This document shows positions 1-47,399 of a stretch of DNA of 47,399 bases, piece after piece. The notes beneath the pieces are model-generated. The model was not told where the DNA came from. It did no database searches and was given only the letters and a program-made list of their open reading frames with translations. Numbering within the stretch: position 1 is the first letter of the stretch; every line of letters starts with the position of its first letter. The DNA lies in the IMG/VR virus record IMGVR_UViG_3300045141_000011, positions 1 to 47,399 of that record; one strand, 5' to 3'. The translations under genes were made by a program, and so were the position numbers. This DNA is from a virus.

Positions 1-127
1 ACTGGTGCTGGCCATCAACCAAGACTATATGCTTGGGCCGTTTCCGCAGGTGGAGTTCAATGATGGTAATGGTGCCTGCAACTTCACGTTGACTTCTGTG
101 ACGGCCATCAGCATCGCAGCGGTGAGG
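1..127. repeat. Terminal direct repeat, left copy
   Basis: These 127 bases are identical to the last 127 bases of the window (47273-47399). An open reading frame continues in phase through the repeat into unique sequence on both sides. A length of exactly 127 nt matches a common largest assembly k-mer, so this is most likely the overlap left when a circular contig is written linearly, not a packaged physical repeat. Confidence 0.95.
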
Positions 128-16646: not shown

Positions 16647-19412
16647 ATGCCGCTAACACTAACGACAATTCCAGGATTCAGCGATCTGGCAGACACTGCT
16701 CTGGCTGCAAACAAGTTCTCACTCGGTACGCACTTGAACCGCATCAATTTCAATGCGAACTTCGGGCTGGTGCGCATGGAGGTATTCACAGGTATCTACA
16801 AGCACGGCGATCAAGTGCCGTTGCCAGTCAGCACGATTGATGGATACCAGTACAATCGCAGTGAATGCATCTACATGTGGGTTCCGCAGAACACTGCTGA
16901 TCCAACGTCTGGCTGGGCCAGCTTCCGTGAACCATGGACAATGTGGTACGGCATTTGGAACGTAGACCAGAACAGCGGTATCGTTCTAAGCGAAATAGGA
17001 TATCGCGGAAATGACGATCACAAAGACAGACAGGCCAGTACGAACGATGGCGTGGTACAGGTGTTCACCATAGCGCAGCGCCAACGCACCAAGCTGATTC
17101 TTTCGGCTATCCCAGCATTTTCAAAGAAGATTGTTACAGACTTCTCTATCAACGAAGCTTTGCATACCAATTTTCTTTTGCTGCCATTGAATCATGACGC
17201 AAAATTCAGCGTTGTGAATACTGAAGTTATGTACATGGGCGAATTCACAAATGGTCAGACAGTTCCGCAACCTGTCAGCCCTGCTGATGGTCGCGTGTAC
17301 GCTTACAGTGAATGTATGTTTCAAACATCGGTGCGATGGACTGCTGACACGGATGGAAACGGTAATCCCATGAAACCTGCCATCAACAAGGGACAGCTTC
17401 AAGATTGGAATTCATCTGTAACGGCTGGTGGTGGCGTTGTAACAGAAGCAACAGTATACGAATTGAGCGGTCAGCATACTTACAATGTCGGCAAGGTGGC
17501 AGTTTTTGCTTTCTGTCAGCGACCTCTAGGCACTACATTCACGCCAGTTCAGACATTGTTCTCAGAAATTCTAGACAGCGTATTCGCTCCTGGACAGACA
17601 TTACGCGCCAGCACGATGCAGCAGCTTACGAACAACATCAATCAAGCCGTGTGCACTCCTGAGTTCTTTGGGCCTACAAGCTACGCGAACGGTGCAACGA
17701 TACCGCTGCCCACCAGCCCATTGGATGGCTATACCTACGCTCGTGGTGAGCTGGCTTACATATGGGATTGGGCCAATACAGGGCCGTCGGCTAACACCAC
17801 AGGCCGCCTATCGCTGGTTCACGGCAACATCAGCGCGACTGGTGTCGTGTCTATCAATGATTATCGTTTGAATTCAGGCGCGTCCTCCGTGGCGCTAGTT
17901 CATGAAGGAACCATGCGCGTCATTGTCATTGGAATGCGCAGTCGTACGTTGACAAGTCCACCCATATCCAATCCAGGTGCGCCAGCTTTCGGAAGCGACG
18001 ATGTGATTGAGTTCTTTGGGCCGAATGACAGGCAAACACAATATCTAAGCAAGGCCACTGGACAGGTGACGCAGAGCGTAATGCTTAGTCCTCAAGCTTC
18101 AATGCAGCCGAATCAGACTATCACATTGACATTTACGATGCCATCGCCTGGAACGCTGCTTCTGATAACGTGGCTGGCGCAAAGTCTGCTTCGTATTGAC
18201 ACTACGACGTTCAACCTTCTAGCTTCTGCTGGCGCTAATCTGGCTATCAATGGTGATTTTGAATCAGCTGGAACGCTTGGAGCGCAGGCGGCCAGCTGGA
18301 CTCTTGTCAGTGGAAATGCGCTAACAAAAGATAACACTGCCATTCATTCTGGATCGTTCAATGGAAAGATTAACAACGCAGGCGGAGCTACGACCATTCA
18401 TTTCAGCACTGCAACAATTGCGCTGACTGGTGGGCAGATTTATGTTTTAGAGGGTTGGATAAAGATAGGAACTGGGATGCCAAACATTCCAGGTCAGGCA
18501 GGAGCAGTGATTGATCTTTCCATCTCAACAGGCATAACCAGCTACACCATATTTACAAAGTTTGGAGCATTCGATGGAGGTTCCACTACAACGCCACGGA
18601 TGGGATTTGCTCCTGATGGTTCTGGAGCTCATGGTTATACATTCTTCCAGTGTTACTTTAAGCCAACAGCAAACGGGACGGTCAACCTTGAGATCATCAT
18701 GCAGTCAAACGGCGGAGATTCTGAGTACGACGATATCAAGGTATACAGATTTCTAGGCGGAGCGTACCCTTCACTGGCCAACTCAACTGGATACTATCTG
18801 TATGAGTACATTGACATCACCACTGGTTTGGTGGCGTTCGCAAACGGCAGCCCACCACCTACTTCGCCCAGCGATACGTTTTCGCAGCAGTGCCAGTTTG
18901 ACGGCCGCATTGGGCTTCCGCCTAAGAAGATCATTACTCCTGGCGCAGGCAGTAGCGGATCTGATACAGGCGGAGGAGACGGTACCTGCCCAGAGTTCAC
19001 AGAACCTGTAACGATACGACGATACAGCAACGATGGTGAACTTATATTTGAGGGCGTGGTGCCAGCCATGGAAGTAGAAACAGGCTGGGAAGCCGACGAT
19101 GGTAGTCTGCGCCGTGGCTGCCACATCAAAGGGTACAGTTTCGCAAAGAAGCGGGACGTGTTCCGTGCTGTGCATCGCACGCGGCAGGTGCACTGCGCAG
19201 GCTGGATGGTGGTGGATGGTCACAGGTTGACACCATGCGAGGCCGTGTGGAGCGATGGCCAGTGGAAGCCAGCCTGGAAGGTGGCTGGAGCTGTGCATGA
19301 TACTCTAGTCAGCATCAAGATGGACATTGAAGTTGAAGCTGATTGGGATGACGAGCACAATTTCTATGTCGGGGCTACACTGATACACAATACTTTCGTT
19401 CTACCTTGCTAA
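16647..19412 (+). CDS. Large tail protein with three repeats, CBM-like module and C-terminal Hint domain
   Basis: This 921-residue tail protein is modular. Three copies of a segment with (V/Q)P(L/Q)P(V/T)S-x-x-DG-x-x-Y-x-(R/Y)-x-E lie near residues 40-76, 193-227 and 338-373, spaced about 150 residues. A region at 531-705 opens with NLAINGDFES and ends SEYDDIKVYRF, matching CBM4/9-like carbohydrate-binding modules. A Gly/Ser linker (768-779) leads to residues 781-915, a Hint-like domain: Cys781 first, HCAGWMVVDGHRLTP near 849-863, and DDEHNFYVGATLIHN at 901-915 with His914-Asn915 followed by Thr916 and only five more residues. It probably binds host polysaccharide and may self-process. Confidence 0.85.
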   Translation: MPLTLTTIPGFSDLADTALAANKFSLGTHLNRINFNANFGLVRMEVFTGIYKHGDQVPLPVSTIDGYQYNRSECIYMWVPQNTADPTSGWASFREPWTMWYGIWNVDQNSGIVLSEIGYRGNDDHKDRQASTNDGVVQVFTIAQRQRTKLILSAIPAFSKKIVTDFSINEALHTNFLLLPLNHDAKFSVVNTEVMYMGEFTNGQTVPQPVSPADGRVYAYSECMFQTSVRWTADTDGNGNPMKPAINKGQLQDWNSSVTAGGGVVTEATVYELSGQHTYNVGKVAVFAFCQRPLGTTFTPVQTLFSEILDSVFAPGQTLRASTMQQLTNNINQAVCTPEFFGPTSYANGATIPLPTSPLDGYTYARGELAYIWDWANTGPSANTTGRLSLVHGNISATGVVSINDYRLNSGASSVALVHEGTMRVIVIGMRSRTLTSPPISNPGAPAFGSDDVIEFFGPNDRQTQYLSKATGQVTQSVMLSPQASMQPNQTITLTFTMPSPGTLLLITWLAQSLLRIDTTTFNLLASAGANLAINGDFESAGTLGAQAASWTLVSGNALTKDNTAIHSGSFNGKINNAGGATTIHFSTATIALTGGQIYVLEGWIKIGTGMPNIPGQAGAVIDLSISTGITSYTIFTKFGAFDGGSTTTPRMGFAPDGSGAHGYTFFQCYFKPTANGTVNLEIIMQSNGGDSEYDDIKVYRFLGGAYPSLANSTGYYLYEYIDITTGLVAFANGSPPPTSPSDTFSQQCQFDGRIGLPPKKIITPGAGSSGSDTGGGDGTCPEFTEPVTIRRYSNDGELIFEGVVPAMEVETGWEADDGSLRRGCHIKGYSFAKKRDVFRAVHRTRQVHCAGWMVVDGHRLTPCEAVWSDGQWKPAWKVAGAVHDTLVSIKMDIEVEADWDDEHNFYVGATLIHNTFVLPC

Positions 19413-19421
19413 GGAGCAGTG

Positions 19422-19769
19422 ATGGACTACACGTGGGTCATGACAAAATCGTACCAAGCTACATCCGGTGAAACTCTGCCTGTTGCTTACAGCTACGGAG
19501 CGAACCATTCTTCCATGGGCTACGAAGCGAACGGCTGGGGACTGGCATGGATTTCACTTGACGTGCACCAGCTGGAATTTCTATTGTCTGGTATTGATGA
19601 CCGCGTGGTCGTTGTCGGGCAAGAAGATGATCCACCGACGCAGTTGCTTCTGGACACGTATGCTGACAAGTTGAAATCAAAGAAATACGATACACTGCGA
19701 CAGGTACTAAAAGAACTTGGCAAGACTGAACCAAGATTTACCATGACGAGGGATCCAAACAAACCATAA
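19422..19769 (+). CDS. Small hypothetical protein after the tail tip gene
   Basis: ATG at 19422 is preferred over GTG at 19419 because AAGGAG at 19411-19416 is then five bases away. The 115-residue product has a compact aromatic N-terminal half (SYGANHSSMGYEANGWGLAW) and a helical C-terminal half with DTYADKLKSKKYDTLRQVLK. No membrane helix or known motif. It lies between the large tail protein and the endolysin and could be a tail accessory or a tail-fibre chaperone; that is a guess from position. Confidence 0.7.
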   Translation: MDYTWVMTKSYQATSGETLPVAYSYGANHSSMGYEANGWGLAWISLDVHQLEFLLSGIDDRVVVVGQEDDPPTQLLLDTYADKLKSKKYDTLRQVLKELGKTEPRFTMTRDPNKP

Positions 19770-19781
19770 CAAGGAGATACT

Positions 19782-20300
19782 ATGAAAATAGCTTGGGGAG
19801 CAAAGGTTAGTCAACAATTCCGCGACTCTGCCATCGGCATAGCACAGATGCTTGGCGTAGAAGTGGATTTCCTGATGGCCTGCATGGCTTTTGAAAGTGG
19901 TGAAACGTTTAGCCCGTCTGTGCGAAACAGTGCAGGCAGCGGAGCCGTGGGCCTTATCCAGTTCATGCCGCAAACGGCGGCAGCTCTGGGAACCACCACC
20001 GAGGCGCTGGCCGCCATGACGAATGAAGAACAGCTGATCTATGTGCAGCGGTACTTCCAGCCGTGGGCTGGCCGCCTGCGCAGCTTGGCTGATCTGTACA
20101 TGGCCATCCTGTGGCCTGCAGGCGTTGGAAAGGATGGGTACTACGTTATCTTTGACAGCAAGGATGTGAACCATCCCAAGCTGTATATCCAGAATCGCGG
20201 CCTGGATTGGAACCATGATGGCGTGATAACAGTGGACGAAGCTGCCGCTGGGCCTATGCGCAAACTGCAGAAAGGCAGGCTGCCTGAATTCTTGGCCTGA
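19782..20300 (+). CDS. Endolysin, lytic transglycosylase (SLT fold)
   Basis: A 172-residue SLT-type muramidase that cleaves the glycan strands of peptidoglycan. The family pattern is clear: MAFESG with catalytic Glu38, then GAVGLIQFMPQTAAALG near 54-70 and a later YVQRYFQPW segment near 87-95. No signal peptide, so it needs the holin encoded next to reach the wall. The C-terminal region includes DWNHDGVITVDEAA near 147-160, which looks like an EF-hand-like calcium loop. AAGGAG precedes ATG. Confidence 0.9.
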   Translation: MKIAWGAKVSQQFRDSAIGIAQMLGVEVDFLMACMAFESGETFSPSVRNSAGSGAVGLIQFMPQTAAALGTTTEALAAMTNEEQLIYVQRYFQPWAGRLRSLADLYMAILWPAGVGKDGYYVIFDSKDVNHPKLYIQNRGLDWNHDGVITVDEAAAGPMRKLQKGRLPEFLA

Positions 20301-20312
20301 CGGGTACCAAGT

Positions 20313-20549
20313 ATGTCTTGGTTCATGAAACTAACAAACACGCTGCAGGGCCGCACCACTACGTTTCTTGTGATGTTCTTTGTTATTGGAAACATACTGG
20401 TGTTCATTGGCAAGGTTGATTTCATTCTGTTCTTTACGGCCTTCATGACAGCCGTGATTGGCCACAGTATCAAAGAAGGAATGATAGACGATAAGAACAC
20501 TGATACTCCAGCCACGGCAGCATCGGTTGACAAAGGAGAAACACCTTGA
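20313..20549 (+). CDS. Holin-like membrane protein
   Basis: The 78-residue protein has two hydrophobic segments (TTFLVMFFVIGNILVFIG near 16-33 and FILFFTAFMTAVIGHSI near 37-53) and a charged, hydrophilic C-terminus, the make-up of a small two-span holin. It follows the endolysin by 12 bases and overlaps the next gene (TTGA), giving the usual lysis cassette. Holins permeabilise the inner membrane at a set time so the endolysin can reach the wall. The ribosome binding site is weak, which may help delay lysis. Confidence 0.75.
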   Translation: MSWFMKLTNTLQGRTTTFLVMFFVIGNILVFIGKVDFILFFTAFMTAVIGHSIKEGMIDDKNTDTPATAASVDKGETP

Positions 20550-47018: not shown

Positions 47019-47399
47019 ATGCATCTGTTAGGTGGTATCGCAATTCTGCTGTTCACTCTGGGTGTGCTGGCCATCGGCACCGTGTACACTCCAGTCGCAA
47101 CTGGTGGAAAGCTTGCTTCCACAGTTCTCACAACGGCCCTTGTGGCAGGCGCATCGCCTTCTTCATTCGCCAATGATGGTCAGACTTTTCTGTTTGTCCG
47201 CGTGGGCGCAACGCCTACGACCATAGCGTTTCAATGTCCGCCGTGCGCGCATGGGCGAGCATTCAGTAATCCACTGGTGCTGGCCATCAACCAAGACTAT
47301 ATGCTTGGGCCGTTTCCGCAGGTGGAGTTCAATGATGGTAATGGTGCCTGCAACTTCACGTTGACTTCTGTGACGGCCATCAGCATCGCAGCGGTGAGG
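47019..47399 (+). CDS. N-terminal part of junction-spanning small structural-type protein
   Basis: ATG at 47019 follows ACGAGG. The first 20 residues are hydrophobic (LLGGIAILLFTLGVLAIGTV), suggesting a membrane anchor or a signal-like segment, which is odd for a capsid protein. The following beta-rich region (ANDGQTFLFVRVGATPTT) matches small phage beta-sandwich proteins. The frame stays open to the last base and continues at bases 2-142. Total length 131 residues. A decoration-type role is possible, but the hydrophobic start argues for membrane association in the cell. Confidence 0.85.
   Translation, partial: MHLLGGIAILLFTLGVLAIGTVYTPVATGGKLASTVLTTALVAGASPSSFANDGQTFLFVRVGATPTTIAFQCPPCAHGRAFSNPLVLAINQDYMLGPFPQVEFNDGNGACNFTLTSVTAISIAAVR
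47273..47399. repeat. Terminal direct repeat, right copy
   Basis: Exact copy of bases 1-127. See the left copy; together they show that the contig closes into a circle. Confidence 0.95.

What the first reader, a model, noticed from the sequence alone, without database searches (positions are those of the whole stretch)
18985..19412. Hint (intein-like) domain at the C-terminus of a tail protein
Residues 781-915 begin with Cys781 and end with His914-Asn915 followed by Thr916, the chemical pieces for self-cleavage or splicing. Only six residues remain after the Asn, so normal splicing would join a six-residue C-extein. A Gly/Ser linker precedes it. Self-cleavage may release the domain after tail assembly or attach the protein covalently to another.
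Basis: partly seen in the sequence, partly recalled or inferred. Interest (0 to 1): 0.7.

Follow-up and report, generated by a model that had tools for sequence, protein, structure and literature searches.

The report
Self-processing domain on phage tail protein
A phage tail protein ends in a very divergent relative of the self-cutting intein/Hedgehog domain that travels with a small neighbouring gene, hinting that these phages cut or covalently attach a tail tip after it is made.

Summary
In detail: Cys781, His914-Asn915, Thr916, a Gly/Ser linker and six residues after the Asn are all there. Sequence profiles barely see a Hint domain (no Pfam match; TIGR01443 E=0.073, below its cut-off). But a 45%-identical homologue (L113) is modelled confidently (pLDDT 85.8) as a Hint fold (Foldseek E=7.8e-5 to a BIL domain, VIA Z 13.6), with Cys1 and the terminal Asn in register with inteins.

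It is unusual. In all 5 family sequences the block-B TxxH motif is [TS]-P-C-E (His replaced by Glu); +1 is Thr, Met or Tyr, so ordinary splicing is not conserved; the chain always ends -Pro-Cys, 6 residues after Asn in 4 of 5. The domain sits on two different tail proteins (a lambda-J-like one in L113) and always precedes a ~112-aa partner gene: the same 6 of 33 records carry both.

Best reading: a diverged A-type-BIL-like self-processing cassette of phages of, probably, Acidobacteriota. It cleaves at Asn915 and perhaps activates residue 780 as a thioester for hydrolysis or transfer. Activity is inferred, not shown.

The parts
16647..19412 (+). tail protein, 921 aa, with three ~150-aa repeats, a CBM_4_9-like insert (residues 530-610, E=2.2e-4, below cut-off), a pre-Hint region, a Gly/Ser linker and the C-terminal Hint domain
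   Evidence: named a tail protein by its place in a head-tail gene cluster and by homologues of the lambda-J type carrying the same end; no PHROG hit of its own
18762..18911 (+). pre-Hint region (residues 706-755), shared with the otherwise different tail protein of L113
   Evidence: L113 versus window, 38% over 60 aa, E=2e-4; L113 versus L100, 40% over 129 aa, E=7e-19
18942..18986 (+). Gly/Ser-rich linker GAGSSGSDTGGGDGT (residues 766-780)
   Evidence: a Gly-rich linker ending in the Cys is also found in L002, L003, L100, L113, L036 and L037
18987..19391 (+). Hint-like domain, Cys781 to Asn915
   Evidence: family alignment; fold of the L113 homologue
18987..18989 (+). Cys781, intein position 1
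   Evidence: 5 of 5 in the family, 7 of 7 with L036 and L037; model residue 5 aligns with intein residue 2
19230..19241 (+). block-B motif T862-P863-C864-E865 in place of TxxH (catalytic His replaced by Glu)
   Evidence: P, C, E in 5 of 5; T or S in 5 of 5; place in the fold inferred from the strand-loop-strand of the model
19350..19361 (+). block-F-like motif D902-E903-H904-N905
   Evidence: D, E, N in 5 of 5; His in 3 of 5 (Ser or Gln in the others)
19386..19391 (+). block G His914-Asn915, the residues for C-terminal cleavage by Asn cyclisation
   Evidence: 5 of 5
19392..19409 (+). C-terminal tail TFVLPC after the Asn; +1 residue Thr916; conserved terminal Pro-Cys
   Evidence: tails TFVLPC, MIVLPC, TFILPC, MRMDPC, YNIMPNPC
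19419..19769 (+). partner gene (ATG at 19422), ~115 aa, no named family; its likely ribosome-binding site (GGAG) follows directly on the stop codon of the tail gene
   Evidence: homologues directly downstream of every Hint-I tail gene

Best explanation
The end of the tail protein is a diverged Hint domain that works like an A-type bacterial intein-like (BIL) domain: a C-terminal self-processing unit, not a splicing intein. Shown: the family, its conserved residues, its purifying selection, the Hint fold of a homologue, the missing block-B His, the variable +1 residue, the conserved -Pro-Cys end, and the linked partner gene. Inferred: His914-Asn915 cuts after Asn915 by Asn cyclisation, releasing the short -PC tail; Cys781 can take up the chain end at residue 780 as a thioester (N-S acyl shift), which is hydrolysed or passed to a nucleophile. 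The outcome would be a 780-residue tail protein freed from its Hint domain, or one joined through its new C-terminus to something else. The partner gene probably makes a dedicated helper: an acceptor, chaperone or regulator of the step. Estimates of mine: Hint fold 0.95; some self-cleavage activity 0.55; ordinary splicing 0.1.
For: Fold: L113 domain model pLDDT 85.8, pTM 0.78. Foldseek's first seven PDB rows (E<=0.001) are BIL or intein structures, led by the BIL2 domain 6y75 (E=7.8e-5), with 2lwy, a bacterial BIL, at rank 6. VIA-align Z 13.6, rmsd 1.8 A over 107 residues to an intein, 13.4 to Hedgehog 1at0, 13.1 to 2lwy; model residue 5 lies on intein residue 2. Residues: C1, H, N and terminal PC in 5 of 5. 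Selection: pN well below pS. Position: two distant homologues of the same tail protein (L036, L037) end, after the same kind of linker, in a different and more canonical Hint-like domain; L037 beats 1000 of 1000 shuffles against a reference Hint profile. Module: partner gene in the same 6 of 33 records as the domain, across two tail-protein types; the close relative L004/G004 (64% identical tail N-terminus) lacks both. A-type BILs keep His-Asn, cleave at the Asn and do not ligate (PMC7765530, passage).
Against: No experiment. Block-B His, described as important for the first acyl shift (PMC7765530, passages), is Glu in 5 of 5, and block-F His is kept in only 3 of 5, so the N-terminal step may be dead or use other groups. 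The window's own model was poor (pLDDT 42.5) and its Foldseek rows were meaningless; the good model is of a 45%-identical homologue and its alignment held two Hint-like fragment rows that I chose. Sequence-only tests of the window against reference Hints are weak: 53 of 1000 shuffles score as high; 25 of 2000 after L036 and L037 were added to the reference; one family member, L003, does not stand out (326 of 2000). Only three independent lineages (window clade, L100, L113) are known.
Confidence: 0.55

Rival explanations
1. The domain is a Hint fold that has lost catalysis and now serves as a structural or receptor-binding cap at the tail tip, with the partner gene as its assembly chaperone.
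For: Block-B His is Glu in 5 of 5, block-F His in only 3 of 5, +1 not kept. Such caps and small chaperone genes next to tail tips are known for other phages (PMC10579305, passages).
Against: Cys1, the penultimate His and the terminal Asn, which a dead domain need not keep, are invariant in 5 of 5 sequences at 38-73% identity.
Confidence: 0.3
2. Active transferase: the thioester at residue 780 is passed to an amine of a partner (virion protein, the neighbour gene product, or the host surface), so that the tail protein is covalently attached.
For: The nearest PDB hit, Tetrahymena BIL2, is reported to form an isopeptide bond through a lysine (PMC8616854, passage). A flexible Gly-rich linker precedes the Cys in every member. 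A partner gene always follows.
Against: No acceptor is identified; the partner has no invariant Lys or Cys among its 15 invariant columns; the block-B His is absent.
Confidence: 0.12
3. True intein or splicing BIL: residues 781-915 are excised and TFVLPC is joined to residue 780.
For: +1 is Thr in the window; the title of one cited paper speaks of ligation by a BIL without nucleophilic side chains (reference list of PMC7664689, seen; the paper itself not read); the -PC end is conserved.
Against: +1 is Met or Tyr in 3 of 5; block-B His missing; only 6-8 residues follow; the domain is an end cap, not an insertion in a conserved protein.
Confidence: 0.08
4. Not a Hint domain at all: an unrelated all-beta tip domain with a chance Cys and His-Asn.
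For: No curated profile matches over its cut-off; weak shuffle tests.
Against: Fold matches with Cys and Asn in register; conservation of exactly those residues.
Confidence: 0.04

Closest known systems
A-type bacterial intein-like (BIL) domains (solved BIL example 2lwy, Clostridium thermocellum)
   Same: Hint fold (VIA Z 13.1; Foldseek E=6.4e-4), first-residue Cys, terminal His-Asn, +1 not required to be a nucleophile, place in variable multidomain proteins
   Different: block-B TxxH is [TS]PCE; fixed -Pro-Cys end 6-8 residues after Asn; phage tail proteins; linked partner gene; no sequence-profile match
BIL2 of the Tetrahymena BUBL1 locus (6y75, 6tmm)
   Same: best Foldseek match (E=7.8e-5); Hint fold at similar length; Cys1 and terminal Asn
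   Different: flanked by ubiquitin-like domains on both sides, keeps its catalytic His69 (PMC8616854, passages); eukaryotic
Hedgehog autoprocessing domain (1at0)
   Same: fold (Z 13.4), C-terminal place in the precursor
   Different: ends in a sterol-recognition region (PMC7765530); the phage domain ends in His-Asn plus a short tail
Hint domains in other phage proteins in BFVD (for example A0A6J5NYB8 and A0A6J5MFV5, named fibronectin type III; A0A6J5NY54, named PASTA-containing)
   Same: Hint fold within proteins of uncultured tailed phages whose names suggest structural modules
   Different: 10-14% identical; their architecture was not examined here
Intramolecular chaperone caps of phage tail spikes and fibres (K1F, T5)
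   Same: C-terminal domain of a tail protein removed by self-cleavage (PMC10579305, passages)
   Different: another fold, helical with beta-hairpin tentacles; cleavage after a Ser; no Hint chemistry

Membership tests
Hint superfamily | Hint (horseshoe all-beta) fold | tested here: met
   model of the L113 homologue; the window's own model was too poor to judge
Hint superfamily | Cys, Ser or Thr at position 1 | tested here: met
   Cys781; 5 of 5
Hint superfamily | block-B Thr-x-x-His | tested here: not met
   [TS]-P-C-E in 5 of 5; single inteins without this His are on record (PMC7765530)
Hint superfamily | C-terminal His-Asn | tested here: met
   5 of 5
Hint superfamily | match to a curated Hint or intein profile over its cut-off | tested here: not met
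   best is TIGR01443, 13.4 bits against a cut-off of 15.6
Intein (class 1) | nucleophile (Cys, Ser, Thr) at +1 | tested here: not met
   T, M, T, M, Y: met in the window itself, not in the family
Intein (class 1) | inserted inside a conserved host protein, absent from its homologues | tested here: not met
   lies at the C-terminus with a 6-8 residue tail
Class 3 intein | no Cys or Ser at position 1, nucleophilic Cys in block F | tested here: not met
   Cys1 present; the position that I assign to F4 is F, E, D, L, D
A-type BIL | conserved C-terminal His-Asn | tested here: met
   5 of 5; definition as given in PMC7765530
A-type BIL | no C-flanking nucleophile | tested here: inconclusive
   3 of 5 without one, 2 of 5 with Thr
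A-type BIL | autocleavage | not testable with these tools
   needs protein expression
A-type BIL | closer in sequence to A-type BILs than to other Hints | not tested
   no BIL sequence set was at hand; the reference set was inteins and Hint domains of bacterial proteins
Intramolecular chaperone cap | trimeric helical cap with beta-hairpin tentacles, cleavage after a Ser | tested here: not met
   the model is all-beta with a Hint fold; the oligomeric state was not tested

The most novel reading that the evidence does not exclude
A two-gene phage cassette, Hint-tipped tail protein plus small partner, in which a Hint with a rebuilt active site (CPE ... [TS]PCE ... HN-x4-6-PC) covalently joins the tail tip to another protein, of the virion or of the host cell, during assembly or infection.
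Probability: 0.12. Interest if true: 0.85.

Novelty: new variant of a known kind. Interest (0 to 1): 0.52.

Why it matters
Hint domains are the chemistry behind protein splicing and Hedgehog processing. A Hint subfamily fixed at the tip of phage tail proteins, without the usual catalytic His, with a conserved -Pro-Cys end and its own partner gene, would show a phage using this chemistry for virion maturation or attachment rather than for selfish splicing. It can be tested directly in E. coli, could yield a His-independent cleaving or ligating tag, and gives a handle on a small, otherwise unnamed gene next to phage tail tips.

Tried and rejected
Profile searches with the whole protein and with the domain alone: Pfam, PHROGs, NCBIfam and PDB sequences gave nothing usable; the weak endoglucanase hit (E=0.073) and the pilus hit (E=0.74) I take as chance. 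TBLASTN of the domain, of the whole protein, of the L036 and L037 domains and of the L113 partner against 50,697 phage records: no match, except a weak match of L037 (E=0.3) to three Salmonella phage TerL proteins that look intein-bearing. First model from 3 sequences: pLDDT 42.5, meaningless Foldseek rows led by viral proteases. MAFFT alignments with whole L036 and L037 domains, or longer fragments of them, were visibly wrong in the second half; I therefore used only their first 53 residues. hhalign of the 5-row family against 9 reference Hints aligned only the last 15 columns (probability 1.3). The family profile does not find L036 or L037 (91 and 536 of 2000 shuffles as good): the two domain types are linked by position and linker, not by sequence. 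The domain profile over 396 Acidobacteriota genomes: 15 of 396 at E<=0.1, one real (G010, 4.8e-57), the other 14 (E 0.028-0.0997) I count as chance. The partner over 396 genomes: 1 of 396, the same genome. Genome-contig scan with the domain: 0 of 73 pattern hits confirmed. I considered a class 3 intein (rejected: Cys1 present) and an intron or homing element (nothing pointing to one was seen; not searched for specifically).

Full report
What is there. The window is a virus record of 47,399 bases with a 127-base direct terminal repeat and 53% G+C, so probably a complete phage genome. Gene order around the finding: capsid and tail genes (Pfam: Mu-F-like, cement, capsid), a 458-aa gene, the 921-aa tail protein 16647-19412, a 116-aa gene at 19419, an SLT transglycosylase at 19782 and a weak Rz-like spanin match at 20546 (PHROG E=0.0047).

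The domain family. Scans of IMG/VR with the whole protein, the domain, or alignments gave relatives carrying the same end in L001 and L002 (one and the same protein), L003 (57 residues of the same end, at a contig edge, in L011), and L113; a scan of bacterial genomes with the N-terminal tail alignment gave L100, in an uncultured Acidobacteria MAG. So there are five distinct sequences: window, L002, L003, L100, L113. Identity to the window is 45-73% by the aligner's count and 41-72% in pairwise alignments. Invariant columns include Cys1-Pro-Glu, a Pro-Cys-Glu motif, Asp-Glu-x-Asn, His-Asn and a final Pro-Cys. Synonymous sites are near saturation while non-synonymous difference is 0.20-0.44, so the domain is under purifying selection. 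All 8 of the 8 bacterial relatives of the tail protein's N-terminal part lie in records titled Acidobacteria or Terriglobia; from this I infer, without proof, an Acidobacteriota host.

Is it a Hint domain? By sequence alone the case is weak: Pfam and PHROGs silent, NCBIfam TIGR01443 at E=0.073 for the window only, and a reference Hint profile scores the window no better than 53 of 1000 shuffles. Two other lines are strong. First, structure: an alignment of the L113, L100, window, L002 and L003 domains, plus the first 53 residues of the L037 and L036 domains, gave a model of the L113 domain with pLDDT 85.8 and pTM 0.78. Its best PDB matches are BIL2, NrdJ-1, a bacterial BIL and AceL, then further inteins and Hedgehog; VIA-align gives Z up to 13.6 at 1.8 A over 107 residues, with model residue 5 on intein residue 2, hence Cys4 on intein Cys1, and the last aligned residues at the terminal Asn. 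Second, position: two distant homologues of the same tail protein, L036 and L037, end after a similar Gly-rich linker in another, more canonical Hint-like domain; L037 scores above all 1000 shuffles against the reference profile, L036 above 990 of 1000. The fold is therefore, in my view, settled at about 0.95, with the caution that the window's own 3-sequence model failed.

What is odd about it. In inteins the first acyl shift leans on a block-B Thr-x-x-His (PMC7765530, passages). Here the motif in the same strand-loop-strand place is [TS]-P-C-E in 5 of 5 (the structural assignment rests on the secondary structure). Block-F His is kept in 3 of 5. The +1 residue is Thr, Met, Thr, Met, Tyr. Yet Cys1, the penultimate His and the Asn never change. 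The peptide after Asn is TFVLPC, MIVLPC, TFILPC, MRMDPC, YNIMPNPC: four of five are exactly six residues, all end in Pro-Cys, with differing codons. A dead domain would not need to keep these; an ordinary intein would keep +1 and block B. The pattern fits a cleaving, BIL-like domain with a modified active site.

It is a cassette. In L113 the same end sits on a lambda-J-like tail protein (PHROG 5616 E=3.6e-68, PHROG 31 E=1.1e-41), unlike the window's protein except for the ~60-130 residues just before the linker (L113-L100 40% over 129 aa; L113-window 38% over 60 aa, E=2e-4). Directly downstream of the domain in every case lies a ~112-aa partner gene whose five members align over their length (15 invariant columns; 26-66% identity to the window's). 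Whole-record searches of 33 records found the domain in 6 and the partner in the same 6. Caution: these six include the records in which the pair was first seen, and make up three independent lineages; the other 27 were gathered by the tail protein. The close relative L004 (G004, 64% identical tail N-terminus) lacks both, which looks like joint loss or gain. The second Hint type (L036, L037) has its own downstream gene, a homologous pair of ~138 aa found nowhere else in the 137 sequences (136 loci and the window) searched then.

How often does the tail protein carry any such end? Of 29 loci of the N-terminal scan whose C-termini I read (31 were returned), 4 end in a Hint-like domain (two of type I, two of type II); of ten more from the second scan (46 returned), none. 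So the C-terminus is a swap site.

Mechanism. The best-supported reading is autoprocessing: Asn915 cyclisation, helped by His914, releasing the short tail, and possibly thioester formation at residue 780 by Cys781. With no conserved +1 nucleophile, splicing is unlikely. A-type BILs are described as keeping His-Asn, cleaving at the Asn and not ligating (PMC7765530, passage); BIL2, the nearest fold, forms an isopeptide with a lysine (PMC8616854, passage), so transfer to a partner is chemically possible. Tail proteins that shed C-terminal caps by self-cleavage are known in other folds (PMC10579305, passages). Catalysis here is inference throughout.

Novelty. In the held open-licence library, searches for Hint, intein or BIL with phage, tail, fibre, virion, prophage or receptor-binding terms returned papers on inteins in phage enzymes (terminase, helicase, reductase; passages read) and none, in listings or passages seen, on a Hint at the end of a phage tail protein. 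This does not cover subscription papers. Predicted-structure records of uncultured phages do hold Hint-fold regions in proteins named after fibronectin or PASTA modules, so Hint domains on phage proteins with structural-type modules exist in databases. I rate the find a new variant of a known kind.

Noticed in passing
window 19419-19769; L113:6399-6737; L100:10274-10609: Small gene directly downstream of the Hint-tailed gene, co-occurring with it in 6 of 33 records; no named family.
   Followed up: partly
L037:9575-10072 and L036:6352-6792, with downstream genes L037:10069-10488 and L036:6801-7217: A second, more canonical Hint-like domain at the same place of the same tail-protein family, with its own conserved downstream gene (~138 aa). 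L037 lacks the final His-Asn and ends in a Cys-containing stretch.
   Followed up: partly
window 16647-19412 and homologues L027-L041: The tail protein's C-terminus is a swap site: homologues with 35-66% identical N-terminal parts end in unrelated regions.
   Followed up: partly
L100-L107: All eight bacterial relatives of the tail protein's N-terminal part are in Acidobacteria or Terriglobia records, suggesting the host phylum.
   Followed up: partly
L111:1201-3147 (MT580117.1): The Salmonella phage 66FD large terminase, annotated only as terminase, appears to carry an intein (817 codons; an intein-like stretch ending in VTHN).
   Followed up: no
window 1-127 and 47273-47399: 127-base direct terminal repeat of the record, suggesting a complete genome.
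   Followed up: no
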